37,850 bases of DNA from contig JANTGK010000011.1 in NCBI GenBank assembly GCA_024762935.1, positions 1-37,850 on the forward strand, in the 5' to 3' direction. Positions within the stretch are counted from its first letter, which is position 1; every line of letters begins with the position of its first letter. Source of the stretch: Candidatus Peregrinibacteria bacterium. Lineage in GTDB: Bacteria > Patescibacteriota > Gracilibacteria > CAIRYL01 > GCA-016699755. A program made the translations under genes and the position numbers. The notes beneath the pieces were generated by a model. That model was not told where the DNA came from. It did not search any database and saw nothing but the letters and a program-made list of their open reading frames with translations. This document shows, piece after piece, positions 895 through 6,183 of this stretch.

Positions 895-2262
895 GTGTTT
901 TTTATACATATAGTGCAAATAAAAATATCCTCACCAAATCCAAAAAAAATAAATAACAAAGTAATATCTACTTTTTTGAATAAAAATTATTTTTCTTCTG
1001 ATGAGTGGACAAAATTTGTAAAAAAGCAAAACAATCCAAAGTATAAATCGTGGAAAGAAATTCAGCGATCACTCACTATTCCTTTAAAACTAAGGCCAGA
1101 AGAGGCATTTAAACTTCTTAATATCGATAGACGAGCTTCAGCAAAACAAACACCTATCTGTGATAAACAAGGTGTACCATTTGTGTGGGAAGAGCTCAGT
1201 CGATTTCGTTTTTTCTGTGATGATTTTGCAAAGAATTTTGGCGCATATAAAACTAAAAATACCCTTTCTGATGAAAAAAAAGACCTCCAGAGAAAAAAAA
1301 TATTTGAAGGTACTGTTGAAGAAGCCATTGCCTCTTCGCAAATGGAAGGGGCGATTATTACGAGAAAGCAAGGGAGGGAACTCTTGAGGTCAAAGAGAAA
1401 GCCAAAGACAAATGCTGAAATTATGGTTTTTAATAACTACAGAACAATTATCCGTATAGAAAATGAATGGAAACACGAAAAAATGAGTGAAAGTCTTTTA
1501 ATCCGAATACAAGAGAGTCTTACAAAAAATACGCTTGAGAAGCCACAGCACGAAGGGCAGCTTCGAAAAGATGCCGATAATATTGTCGTTGGTGATAAAC
1601 TGCAAGACAGAACGGCTTTTGTACCACCAACAGAAAAACAGATGAAAAAACAACTCATCCGCCTTATCGATTTTGCAAACGATGAACTTGCTCATGATGA
1701 ATACTTTGGAGATCTTCCAAAGGCTATTCTTCTTCACTTCTGGATTGCCTATCTCCATCCATTTTGTGATGGGAACGGAAGAACAGCACGGGCCATATTT
1801 TACTGGTATCTTTTACGGAATAATTATCCGTATATTGGGTTTTTACCGATATCTACACGAATTAAAAAATCAAAAAATTCCTATGAACAAGCCTTTCTTC
1901 TCGTAGAACAAGATAATAACAATCTGACATATTTTTTTGATTACATCATCAGGCAGATGAAAATTTCTATAAAGGATTTTCAGGAGTATGAAGAGAGACT
2001 CGAACAAGAAGAACAAAAAAATATTGAGATCAGTAAAAAATGCTCAAACCTCAATGATCGACAAATAGAACTGCTTCAATATTTTCTCCAACACCCAAAT
2101 GAGTACACTACCTTTGGTCGACATCAATCGTATCAGGAGGTGTCACATGTTACCGCACGAAAAGACCTCCTTGCCTTAGAAGAAAAAAACTACCTTTCTT
2201 CACGAAAAAAAGGCAAACACATATTTTTCTCCCCTACCAAAAAAGTACAAACACTCTTGTAA
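895..2262 (+). CDS. Fic family protein
   Basis: Fic motif HPFCDGNGRTAR; upstream SSQMEG matches the (S/T)xxxE(G/N) inhibitory motif; C-terminal winged-helix-like region. Exact start uncertain. Confidence 0.9.
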   Translation: MFFIHIVQIKISSPNPKKINNKVISTFLNKNYFSSDEWTKFVKKQNNPKYKSWKEIQRSLTIPLKLRPEEAFKLLNIDRRASAKQTPICDKQGVPFVWEELSRFRFFCDDFAKNFGAYKTKNTLSDEKKDLQRKKIFEGTVEEAIASSQMEGAIITRKQGRELLRSKRKPKTNAEIMVFNNYRTIIRIENEWKHEKMSESLLIRIQESLTKNTLEKPQHEGQLRKDADNIVVGDKLQDRTAFVPPTEKQMKKQLIRLIDFANDELAHDEYFGDLPKAILLHFWIAYLHPFCDGNGRTARAIFYWYLLRNNYPYIGFLPISTRIKKSKNSYEQAFLLVEQDNNNLTYFFDYIIRQMKISIKDFQEYEERLEQEEQKNIEISKKCSNLNDRQIELLQYFLQHPNEYTTFGRHQSYQEVSHVTARKDLLALEEKNYLSSRKKGKHIFFSPTKKVQTLL

Positions 2263-2304: not shown

Positions 2305-2422
2305 TGCACAACGTTTTTCACTCGCTATGCGTCTTCGCGAAATAAAAATGAGCAGAGAAAGAAAAGATATTCCTCTTTTTTATTGAAACAATAAATCGTG
2401 AAGCGATCCATGATGTTTGTTT
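2305..2422 (+). repeat. Repeat A copy 1 (~118 bp)
   Basis: tgcacaacgtttttcactcgctatgcgtcttcgcgaaataaaaatgagcagagaaagaaaagatatt...aaatcgtgaagcgatccatga is near-identical to 3027-3145. Confidence 0.85.
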
Positions 2423-2489
2423 TTTTGAGAATTTTCTCGTGCGGAATCTCCCCTTGCTTTTTTATAATAAAAGTATAAAAATCTCATTA

Positions 2490-2540
2490 CTTTGTTTTTT
2501 GCCAAGGAGCACGGGAGTCCGTTGCTTCGCAAAAGCAGAG
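2490..2540 (+). promoter_or_regulatory. Structured leader element L1 upstream of small ORF 1
   Basis: Stems CTTTG/CAGAG, TTTTGC/GCAAAA, GGAGC/GCTTC and ACGG/CCGT around a GAGT loop; same architecture as 3328-3380 with compensatory differences. Confidence 0.6.
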
Positions 2541-2572
2541 TATCAGGTTAAAAACATAGGAGAAATACTAAG

Positions 2573-2812
2573 ATGTCTAGCAAAGATGGGTATGTTCAAT
2601 TAGCTGAAATCAAAGATCTTTCTGAGATGGATCTTGCGATATTGGTTGAAGAAATGTTGAACGATGAAAGAAGGTTTTCAATGATGGCTTGGAGGGTTGT
2701 TTCCAAGCTTCAGTCCCTCGCTTTGACAGATGAGGAAAAAAATCTACTTGCTCCAGAAGCAAACCTGAATGATCTCGTAAGGTCTCGACACTGTATAGTA
2801 TCTGCTACCTGA
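2573..2812 (+). CDS. Small hypothetical protein 1 (79 aa) of a cassette
   Basis: ATG preceded by AGGAGAAA; similarity to ORFs at 3421 and 3738 (LSEMDLAILVEEMLNDERRFSMMAW...PEANLNDL). Confidence 0.6.
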   Translation: MSSKDGYVQLAEIKDLSEMDLAILVEEMLNDERRFSMMAWRVVSKLQSLALTDEEKNLLAPEANLNDLVRSRHCIVSAT

Positions 2813-2818
2813 TTGTCC

Positions 2819-2846
2819 GGCGAGCGTAGAGAAATCTGCGCTCGCC
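2819..2846 (+). other. Terminal hairpin T1
   Basis: GGCGAGCGTAGA-GAAA-TCTGCGCTCGCC: 12-bp stem with one G.U and a tetraloop, 6 nt after the ORF 1 stop; T6 run 8 nt downstream. Confidence 0.8.
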
Positions 2847-2936
2847 AACACACCTTTTTTGCAGAAAGAGAAAAACTTCACGTTTTTGCGAATCACGAGT
2901 AAAAAATGAGTTACCTGTTAGGACTAGAGAACATAA

Positions 2937-2982
2937 TGTGCAGAATTCACTTTATTCGCTATGCGTCTTCACGAATCAAAAG
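2937..2982 (+). repeat. Repeat A, partial copy
   Basis: tgtgcagaattcactttattcgctatgcgtcttcacgaatcaaa resembles the first ~45 bp of repeat A. Confidence 0.65.
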
Positions 2983-3026
2983 AGTAAAAGAGAAGCACAT
3001 TCTTTTGTCGGAGATGGAAAATATAA

Positions 3027-3145
3027 TGCACAATGTTTTTCATTCGCTATGCGTCTTCGCGAAATAAAAATGAGCAGAGAAAGAAAAGATATTTCTCCAC
3101 TAAAATCAAATAACAAATCGTGAAGCGATCCATGAATTTTGTTTC
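3027..3145 (+). repeat. Repeat A copy 2 (~119 bp)
   Basis: Near-identical to 2305-2422. Confidence 0.85.
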
Positions 3146-3179
3146 TGTGGGTCTTCTGCACCTCTTTCTCAGGAATTTT

Positions 3180-3227
3180 GCGCGGAGCCTCCCTCCCTTT
3201 ATCAAAGGGAGGGTTGGGGAGGGATTT
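3180..3227. repeat. 48-bp GC-rich palindromic interspersed repeat, copy 1
   Basis: gcgcggagcctccctccctttatcaaagggagggttggggagggattt; 45/48 identical to 6136-6183; internal inverted repeat CCTCCCTTT/AAAGGGAGG. Confidence 0.85.
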
Positions 3228-3327
3228 CCCCCTCTCTTTCCTCCCATTAAATACTCATAAATAAGAGTTAAAAAAATAATATAAATAAATTATTGACAAA
3301 TTATTTGAGGAGTATAAGATTCCTCCA

Positions 3328-3380
3328 CTTTGTTTTTTGTCAAGAAGTACGGGAAACCGTCACTTCCGACACAAACAAAG
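3328..3380 (+). promoter_or_regulatory. Structured leader element L2 upstream of small ORF 2
   Basis: Stems CTTTG/CAAAG, TTTGT/ACAAA, GAAGT/ACTTC and ACGG/CCGT around a GAAA loop; same plan as L1. Confidence 0.6.
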
Positions 3381-3420
3381 TTCCAGGCACTTAACATTCA
3401 CGCAAATGAAAGGAAATCCA

Positions 3421-3681
3421 ATGGAAAAGAAAATGCAAGAAGTAGGAGTTCGCACAGCGAAGCTCCTTACTAGTCCAGAAAAAATGAACCAAAAGGTTCA
3501 GCAGATGATTGCTGAAGGTATATGTTTCACAGAAGCTGCATGGCATCTTCTCGAAGATTATGCTCGGGTGCAATGGATTGCACCTGCCGACCAACTCAAG
3601 GTTTCTCCGGATGCAAACCTGGAAAAACTTGAGGCACCAAAGGCTTCTGAAAACACCTTATTACTAGTAAAATCCGCCTGA
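3421..3681 (+). CDS. Small hypothetical protein 2 (86 aa) of a cassette
   Basis: ATG preceded by AAAGGAAA; MEKKMQEVGVRTAKLL...VQQMIAEGICFTEAAW...SPDANLEKL aligns with ORF 1. Confidence 0.6.
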   Translation: MEKKMQEVGVRTAKLLTSPEKMNQKVQQMIAEGICFTEAAWHLLEDYARVQWIAPADQLKVSPDANLEKLEAPKASENTLLLVKSA

Positions 3682-3687
3682 AAAACC

Positions 3688-3715
3688 GGTGAGCGTAGAT
3701 TTATCTGCGCTCGCC
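3688..3715 (+). other. Terminal hairpin T2
   Basis: GGTGAGCGTAGA-TTTA-TCTGCGCTCGCC, 12-bp stem with two G.U pairs, 6 nt after the ORF 2 stop. Confidence 0.8.
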
Positions 3716-3737
3716 ACAACCTTATTTGGAGAAAACC

Positions 3738-3938
3738 ATGGGAAGAGAAATACAACCGGGAGAGGTAATACACCTCTCTGAAGATGATTTTAAAGTTTTG
3801 CTCAACAAAATACTGGCAGAGGCATTGTCCTTTTCTCCTCTCGAAAAAGGAGACCCTCTACCCCAAACAAAATACAAAGGAGGTAAGTGCCTAAAAACAA
3901 CAAGTGCAGAGAAATCTGCGCTTGTTCACCCTGCCTAA
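3738..3938 (+). CDS. Small hypothetical protein 3 (66 aa), possibly truncated paralogue
   Basis: MGREIQPGEVIHLSEDDFKVLLNKILAEALSF...; N-terminal half aligns with ORFs 1 and 2; 3' end reads through hairpin T3. Confidence 0.45.
   Translation: MGREIQPGEVIHLSEDDFKVLLNKILAEALSFSPLEKGDPLPQTKYKGGKCLKTTSAEKSALVHPA
3899..3926 (+). other. Terminal hairpin T3
   Basis: AACAAGTGCAGA-GAAA-TCTGCGCTTGTT, 12-bp stem with one G.U; covaries with T1 and T2. Confidence 0.8.
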
Positions 3939-3949
3939 AATGTTTTGTA

Positions 3950-4249
3950 CTATCCACAAACATTTAGGACAGTGTAGTTTAGTTTTTGCTTCTTCAAGCG
4001 GAATTTCAGGATACCAAACTGAAGAGGTGAGAGAAAATGTTTGGATTTTTGAGGACGTTTATCGTTGAAGTATTTTAGTGATAACATATTTTGTTTTTGT
4101 ATTTTCTGAAGGGAAGGAAAGGCTCTTCCTCTATAAACCTCTTCTTCATCGATTCGATGTGTTCGTTCAACGTGTGAATTTAATCGAGGGTAGGCAGGAG
4201 GGATGAGCCGATGTTTATAGTCAAAAAGTTGGCACCCACGATGCTTCAA
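3950..4249 (-). pseudogene. Remnant of an integrase-core (IS481-like) transposase C-terminus
   Basis: PRLNSHVERTHRIDEEEVYRGRAF...YFNDKRPQKSKHFLSPLQF resembles rve-domain C-terminal motifs; upstream sequence has stops and no catalytic core is readable. Confidence 0.65.
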
Positions 4250-4505: not shown

Positions 4506-5813
4506 ATGCAAAAAACAGCAATACAAATATGTAAAAAACTTCAAAATGCTGGGTTTGAGGCTCTTTTTGCCGGAGGAGCTGTTCGTGATCTCTTAATGGC
4601 TCGCAATCCAGATGATATTGATATCGCTACCAATGCAAAGCCAGAGGAAATTGAGGCCATTTTTGAAAAGAGCTTTGCCATTGGAAAACATTTTGGAGTG
4701 ATTCTTATTGAAGAAAATGGGCACCATTTTGAGATTGCTACGTTTCGGAGCGATGGCGGATATACCGATGGTCGTCGGCCAGATGCGGTATATTTCACTG
4801 ATAAAAAAGAAGATGCCCTTCGGCGTGATTTTACCTGTAATGCTCTTTTTTGGGATCCCATAGCAGACAAACTGTATGACTATGTTGGAGGAGAGCAAGA
4901 TATTAAAGAGAAAGTCCTTCGATTTGTCGGTGAGCCAGAGAGTCGCATTCGTGAGGATTACCTCCGTATATTACGAGCAGTGCGATTTAAAAATCGTCTA
5001 GAATTTACCTATGGTCCAAATCTAGAAGATGCCCTTCGGCAGCATGCCACCCTTGTTTCTGCCGTGTCAGCTGAGCGTATTAATACAGAGCTCACAAAAA
5101 TGTTACTCTCTTTAAAACGCACTTATGCTTTTTCTGATTTGGAATCTTTAGGGATTCTTCGGGTCATTCTCCCAGAAGTAGCAAATCTCACAAAAATTAC
5201 CGATGGAACAGGGGACAAAAATGTTTTTGAGCATACTATAGATTGTTTGTATCATGTTCCAAAAAACCCAGACCTCACCTTGGTTTGGGGACTCCTTCTT
5301 CATGATATTGGAAAAGCGACAACACTCGTTCATAAGGCCGATCGAAATCATTTTCCAGGACACGAGAGAGCATCGGAAAAAATGGCAAAAAAAATATGTA
5401 ATCGTTTAAAGTTTTCTCGTTTCCAAAAAGATAAGATTTGTTGGCTTTGCAGAGAGCATATTCCCTTCTATAATGTTCTGAAGATGAGCTACGTGCACCG
5501 AATGCATTTTTATGATCATCCTTTTTTCCGAGATCTCATTGACCTTTGTCGGTATGATGCTCTCGGGAGTGATGGTGATGATTCATTAGTAGATGTTATT
5601 GAAGCGGATTACAAGAAGGCACATGAGCAAAAATTGCTTCCACAGTTTCACCCTCGTCTCTTGGGGGGTGGGGAGATTATGGAGATTGCTCATATTGAGG
5701 AAGGAGCAAAAATCGGAGAAATAAAAAAAATTCTTCGAGACAAGCAGATTGCCGGTGAGATTTCGACCAAAGAAGAAGCAAAACAAGTCGTATTGCAGAT
5801 TTTATCTGAATAA
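4506..5813 (+). CDS. cca: CCA tRNA nucleotidyltransferase / polyA polymerase family with HD domain
   Basis: GGAVRDLLMARNPDDIDIAT, RRDFTCNALFW, RIREDYLRILRAVRF, LLHDIGK. Confidence 0.93.
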   Translation: MQKTAIQICKKLQNAGFEALFAGGAVRDLLMARNPDDIDIATNAKPEEIEAIFEKSFAIGKHFGVILIEENGHHFEIATFRSDGGYTDGRRPDAVYFTDKKEDALRRDFTCNALFWDPIADKLYDYVGGEQDIKEKVLRFVGEPESRIREDYLRILRAVRFKNRLEFTYGPNLEDALRQHATLVSAVSAERINTELTKMLLSLKRTYAFSDLESLGILRVILPEVANLTKITDGTGDKNVFEHTIDCLYHVPKNPDLTLVWGLLLHDIGKATTLVHKADRNHFPGHERASEKMAKKICNRLKFSRFQKDKICWLCREHIPFYNVLKMSYVHRMHFYDHPFFRDLIDLCRYDALGSDGDDSLVDVIEADYKKAHEQKLLPQFHPRLLGGGEIMEIAHIEEGAKIGEIKKILRDKQIAGEISTKEEAKQVVLQILSE

Positions 5814-6135: not shown

Positions 6136-6183
6136 GCGCGGAGCCTCCCTCCCTTTACAAAAGGGAGGGCTGGGGAGGGATTT
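6136..6183. repeat. 48-bp GC-rich palindromic interspersed repeat, copy 2
   Basis: gcgcggagcctccctccctttacaaaagggagggctggggagggattt; 45/48 identical to 3180-3227. Confidence 0.85.

What the first reader, a model, noticed from the sequence alone, without database searches (positions are those of the whole stretch)
2573..3938. Array of three apparently paralogous small ORFs in a repeated cassette
ORF 1 (2573-2812), ORF 2 (3421-3681) and ORF 3 (3738-3938) align without gaps over a short core: LSEMDLAILVEEMLNDERRFSMMAW / ..QKVQQMIAEGICFTEAAW / LSEDDFKVLLNKILAEALSF. ORFs 1 and 2 also share a C-terminal PEANLNDL / PDANLEKL block. Each carries the same hairpin at its 3' end, and ORFs 1 and 2 have the same structured leader. 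I recognise no known family. This looks like a lineage-specific small-protein cassette copied in tandem.
Basis: partly seen in the sequence, partly recalled or inferred. Interest (0 to 1): 0.7.

Follow-up and report, generated by a model that had tools for sequence, protein, structure and literature searches.

The report
Orphan small-protein gene pair, shared RNA hairpins
Two small protein genes, found nowhere else in any collection searched, sit side by side in an apparently ultra-small (CPR-type) bacterium, each between matching RNA hairpins that probably protect its message; a third small gene beside them is partly a scrap copied from an unrelated gene.

Summary
The observation mostly holds. 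ORF1, ORF2 and ORF3 are open, have ribosome sites and coding-like codon usage. ORF1 and ORF2 are real but old paralogues: 14 identical residues of 42 aligned, beyond shuffles and all 445 fragments of window genes. Their leaders form the same 53-nt hairpin, apparently starting at the transcription start, and all three ORFs carry the same 12-bp 3' hairpin, with compensatory changes.

ORF3 is not a clean third copy. The half of its 'core' that should match ORFs 1 and 2 (KILAEALSFSPLEKG) is a 47-bp, 98%-identical, same-frame fragment of a lamin-tail-domain gene on another contig. Only its first ~20 residues may be related to ORF1.

No relative was found in 357 genomes of the class, a 381-genome phylum-level sample, phages, plasmids, viral contigs or family libraries. 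The genome-contig scan failed.

The RNA 'wrapper' is 79-80% identical between copies, while ORF DNA is near the random level (67.5% against 62%): an old duplication, not a fresh tandem copy. Best reading: orphan small-protein genes on hairpin-capped, stable messages. Protein function is unknown; interest is moderate to low.

The parts
2305..2427 (+). Upstream non-coding repeat D1, copy a
   Evidence: 87% identical over 123 nt to 3027-3149; no significant fold; no other copy in the genome
2454..2482 (+). Putative promoter of cassette 1 (TTGCTT ... TATAAAAA), by eye
   Evidence: sequence reading; same distance to the leader start as in cassette 2; not found by the consensus scan
2489..2541 (+). 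5'-terminal leader hairpin 1
   Evidence: fold z -3.7; pair counts against leader 2; only two matches to model R1 in 357 genomes
2573..2812 (+). ORF1, 79 aa orphan protein
   Evidence: GGAG upstream; paralogue of ORF2
2819..2846 (+). 3' hairpin 1, 12 bp, GAAA loop
2929..2981 (+). Partial extra copy of D1
   Evidence: family D2
3027..3149 (+). Upstream repeat D1, copy c
3293..3320 (+). Promoter-like site of cassette 2 (TTGACA, 16 nt, TAAGAT)
3327..3381 (+). 5'-terminal leader hairpin 2
3421..3681 (+). ORF2, 86 aa orphan protein
3688..3715 (+). 3' hairpin 2, between ORF2 and ORF3
3738..3938 (+). ORF3, 66 aa chimeric reading frame
   Evidence: first 23 aa weakly like ORF1
3807..3853 (+). 47-bp fragment copied from a lamin-tail-domain gene (C2:30089-30135), same frame
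   Evidence: 98% identity, E 6.8e-16; donor gene is PF00932, 4 stretches
3899..3926 (+). 3' hairpin 3, inside the end of ORF3

Best explanation
Two orphan small-protein genes arose by an old duplication. Each is expressed from its own promoter as a short mRNA with a hairpin that begins at or next to the 5' end and a 12-bp hairpin just after the stop; ORF3 rides behind ORF2. The two hairpins most likely shield the message from nucleases, so that a short mRNA is long-lived and yields much small protein. Shown: the ORFs, the paralogy of ORF1 and ORF2, the shared RNA structures, and absence from the related genomes and databases searched. Inferred: transcription start, message protection, high expression. 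The molecular role of the protein is not established; low-confidence models suggest a small mainly helical soluble protein.
For: Coding signal: codon log-odds 0.17, 0.34 and 0.31 in frame, against genes 0.35 +/- 0.12 and off-frame -0.69 +/- 0.29; zero stops in frame for all three, against 4 to 7 in the other forward frames; codon-position differences 23/10/30 over 42 aligned codons of ORF1 and ORF2. RNA structure. Promoter-like site 7 nt before leader 2. 5' stem-loops (recA, vacA and others) and 3' hairpins are reported to stabilise bacterial mRNAs (PMC7509114). No transmembrane stretch is visible in the sequences.
Against: Only two full copies exist, so covariation counts are small, and for the leader no better than shuffles of so few rows (117 of 500). 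No transcript or peptide data. The 3' hairpins lack an adjacent U-run, so they are not plain terminators. Promoter 1 is weak.
Confidence: 0.5

Rival explanations
1. The RNA is the main product: a structured, perhaps dual-function, small RNA, with the ORFs secondary. The hairpins are what selection keeps and the encoded proteins drift.
For: Leader and 3' hairpin are 79-80% identical between copies while ORF DNA is 67.5%, near the random-gene level of 62 +/- 3%; hairpin pairs change on both sides.
Against: Codon usage, Shine-Dalgarno sites, no stops, and fewer second-position than third-position differences in the aligned core.
Confidence: 0.15
2. The leader hairpin is a regulatory site (protein-binding or autoregulatory) that controls translation of each small ORF, rather than a stabiliser.
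For: The apical sequence ACGGGANNCCGT and the CAAG bulge are among the best kept parts.
Against: The Shine-Dalgarno lies outside the hairpin, no competing fold or terminator is seen in the leader, and no Rfam family matches.
Confidence: 0.2
3. Integron-like gene cassettes: the 3' hairpins are recombination sites and the ORFs are captured cargo.
For: ORF followed by an inverted repeat, repeated in an array, with divergent cargo.
Against: Each full cassette has its own promoter-like region and leader; no attC core motifs by eye; the tyrosine recombinases in the genome are below the IntI cut-off and their matches skip part of the IntI model (positions about 180-220 or 180-232).
Confidence: 0.04
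4. Decaying debris in a repeat-rich spot: small ORFs without function, kept open by chance.
For: A copied lamin-tail-domain fragment, a transposase remnant and two kinds of repeats lie in the same 2 kb; no relatives anywhere searched.
Against: Two ORFs with near-saturated silent sites are still open, codon-like and paralogous in protein.
Confidence: 0.11

Closest known systems
5' stabilising stem-loop mRNAs (E. coli ompA type) with 3' protective hairpins
   Same: Hairpin at or next to the inferred transcript start, Shine-Dalgarno left free, and a 3' hairpin
   Different: Encodes a tiny orphan protein; both ends are repeated as a set in two tandem genes; no half-life data
Taxon-restricted (orphan) small-protein genes of CPR bacteria
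   Same: Under 100 aa, no family match, found in one genome only
   Different: Tandem paralogues with conserved structured untranslated regions
Type I toxin genes (hok, tisB and similar)
   Same: Small ORF on a short, strongly structured mRNA, in tandem
   Different: Encoded proteins are charged and look soluble, not membrane peptides; no antisense promoter was identified
Integron gene cassettes
   Same: Small ORFs each followed by an inverted repeat
   Different: Own promoters and leaders, no IntI over cut-off, no attC core seen

Membership tests
Stabilising 5' stem-loop mRNA (ompA type) | Hairpin within a few nt of the 5' end | tested here: inconclusive
   Hairpin found; start inferred from a promoter-like site 7 nt upstream, found by scan in copy 2 only
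Stabilising 5' stem-loop mRNA (ompA type) | Longer mRNA half-life caused by the hairpin | not testable with these tools
   Needs an experiment
Three-member paralogous ORF family | All members share sequence beyond chance | tested here: not met
   ORF1-ORF2 met; ORF2-ORF3 p 0.65; ORF1-ORF3 rests partly on a copied lamin-tail-domain fragment
Integron cassette | IntI integrase in the genome | tested here: not met
   No match over the TIGR02249 cut-off; below-cut-off matches also occur in all 14 control genomes. The genome is 96% complete, so a missing gene is not fully excluded.
Type I toxin | Hydrophobic membrane peptide | tested here: not met
   Sequences are charged throughout, with no long hydrophobic stretch (read by eye)
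Known protein family | Match in Pfam, NCBIfam, PHROGs, PADLOC or PDB | tested here: not met
   folds
Known RNA family | Rfam match at gathering score | tested here: not met

The most novel reading that the evidence does not exclude
A conserved RNA wrapper (5' hairpin plus 3' hairpin) acts as a carrier for fast-changing small proteins: selection holds the wrapper while the payload diverges or is partly rebuilt from other genes, as in ORF3 with its lamin-tail-domain fragment, so the site is a place where new small genes are made.
Probability: 0.1. Interest if true: 0.65.

Novelty: new member of a known kind. Interest (0 to 1): 0.3.

Why it matters
It is a small, testable case of orphan genes in what appears to be a candidate-phylum bacterium, in which the RNA frame is kept better than the protein, and one neighbouring ORF can be seen to have taken in a fragment of another gene in frame. 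It adds an undescribed small-protein family and RNA leader known so far from one genome only.

Tried and rejected
Weak class-level profile hits: the two checked, G187 and G188, are chance matches in or across unrelated coding sequence; the third (G124, E 0.036) was not followed up. The one order-level DNA match over the promoter region (G134) lies antisense inside a long ORF, and the other order-level matches are short and mostly A+T-rich. Hairpin-like matches in five other genomes carry two mismatches each and are of about control frequency. A RiPP precursor was considered from the C-terminal shape and dropped: no NCBIfam match. Structures: ORF1 model pLDDT 74, ORF2 model 54; no PDB or viral fold match for the ORF1 model, and the ORF2 model was too poor to search. 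The CCA-gene upstream regions in three order-level genomes show no obvious matching small ORFs.

Full report
Setting. The window is the whole of contig C11 of an 82-contig, 1.38-Mb genome. The finding lies between a Fic-domain gene (895-2262, PF02661) and a CCA-adding-enzyme gene (4506-5813, PF01743). It is followed on the minus strand by a remnant of a transposase integrase core (3950-4249, rve_3, E 3.6e-6).

Observation. Codon log-odds trained on eleven large window genes give 0.165, 0.339 and 0.308 for the three frames, against 0.354 +/- 0.116 for gene pieces and -0.69 +/- 0.29 for off-frame pieces. All three therefore look coded.

Paralogy. ORF1 against ORF2: local score 50 against a shuffle mean of 26, p about 6e-4, above every one of 445 fragments of the window's genes in both directions. 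Identical residues include F, AW, Q, D, K and PxANL, with silent changes at most of the identical codons; differences by codon position over 42 codons are 23, 10 and 30. Because the codons were paired by a protein alignment, that pattern is somewhat biased towards third positions. ORF2 against ORF3 is at the shuffle level (p 0.65). ORF1 against ORF3 scores 44, but this includes a stretch that is not native.

ORF3 is chimeric. Window 3807-3853 is 98% identical (46 of 47, E 6.8e-16) to C2:30089-30135, inside an open frame of at least 825 aa with four lamin-tail-domain (PF00932) stretches, and in the same frame. In that protein the segment fits the recurring domain pattern, so it is the likely donor and ORF3 the receiver (inference). 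A direct repeat AACAAAATAC stands at 3804 and 3866, spacing 62, which fits insertion of a short piece. The first 23 residues of ORF3 keep a weak similarity to ORF1 (score 32, p 0.002 to 0.005).

RNA wrapper. The leaders 2489-2541 and 3327-3381 fold into one long hairpin (z -3.7 and -3.5); two pairs are changed on both sides and every pair is kept. With only two rows this is not significant against shuffling (117 of 500), but sliding the structure destroys it. The 3' hairpins fold at z -5.5 to -6.6 and keep 12 of 12 pairs in all three copies, with three pairs changed on both sides (19 of 500 shuffles). A promoter-like site ends 7 nt before leader 2, and a weaker look-alike stands at the same distance before leader 1 (read by eye), so the hairpin probably begins at or next to the transcript's 5' end. 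No U-run follows the 3' hairpins directly.

Age. Identity between the two copies is 87% in the far upstream repeat D1, 79% in the leader, 80% around the 3' hairpin and 67.5% in the ORFs, where random gene pieces give 62 +/- 3%. Third codon positions differ at 71% of aligned codons. The duplication is old, and the RNA parts are better kept than the protein; D1 may be younger or homogenised.

Distribution. A two-row protein profile finds only the two own copies in 357 genomes of the class and in a 381-genome phylum-level sample (the two sets overlap). The two weak hits examined are chance. The leader model finds only the two own copies in the class. The hairpin at two mismatches or fewer occurs at about control frequency elsewhere. 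DNA of the locus finds nothing convincing in the order. Viral contigs, phages with ORF2, plasmids with ORF1, Pfam, NCBIfam, PHROGs, PADLOC, PDB and Rfam give nothing significant. The genome-contig scan did not complete. So 'lineage-specific' means known from one genome, and the relatives held are distant: the same family holds only one other genome.

Structure. AlphaFold with the two-row alignment gives ORF1 a mainly helical model (pLDDT 74, pTM 0.59) and ORF2 a poorer one with a similar N-terminal order of elements (pLDDT 54); the two are not independent. The ORF1 model has no fold match.

How it works. The most likely reading is that each gene makes a short mRNA capped at both ends by hairpins. 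In other bacteria 5' stem-loops and 3' hairpins lengthen mRNA life (PMC7509114). That predicts abundant small proteins. What the proteins do is open; a soluble helical protein is the most that can be said, from low-confidence models. Rivals are a functional RNA with a secondary ORF, a regulatory leader, an integron-like cassette (disfavoured), or debris.

Verdict. Real, orphan, partly misread, and modest in interest. The most unusual features are the conserved wrapper around a diverged payload and the gene fragment captured in frame in ORF3.

Noticed in passing
window 3807-3853 and L003 1501-1547 (C2:30089-30135): A 47-bp, 98%-identical, same-frame fragment of a lamin-tail-domain gene lies inside ORF3, next to a 10-bp direct repeat AACAAAATAC at 3804 and 3866.
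   Followed up: yes
window 2305-2427, 2929-2981, 3027-3149: Repeat D1 occurs upstream of each cassette and holds a palindrome-like TTCGC-N11-GCGAA; it could be an operator. Not found elsewhere in the genome.
   Followed up: partly
window 3185-3232, 6136-6183; C12:31006-31043: A small G+C-rich palindromic repeat (CCTCCCTTT..AAAGGGAGGG..GGGGAGGGATTT) occurs at three places in the genome.
   Followed up: no
window 3950-4249 (-): Truncated integrase-core (rve_3) transposase fragment directly downstream of ORF3.
   Followed up: partly
window 895-2262: Fic-domain protein similar to SoFic (PADLOC PDLC03963, E 2.2e-42) directly upstream on the same strand.
   Followed up: no
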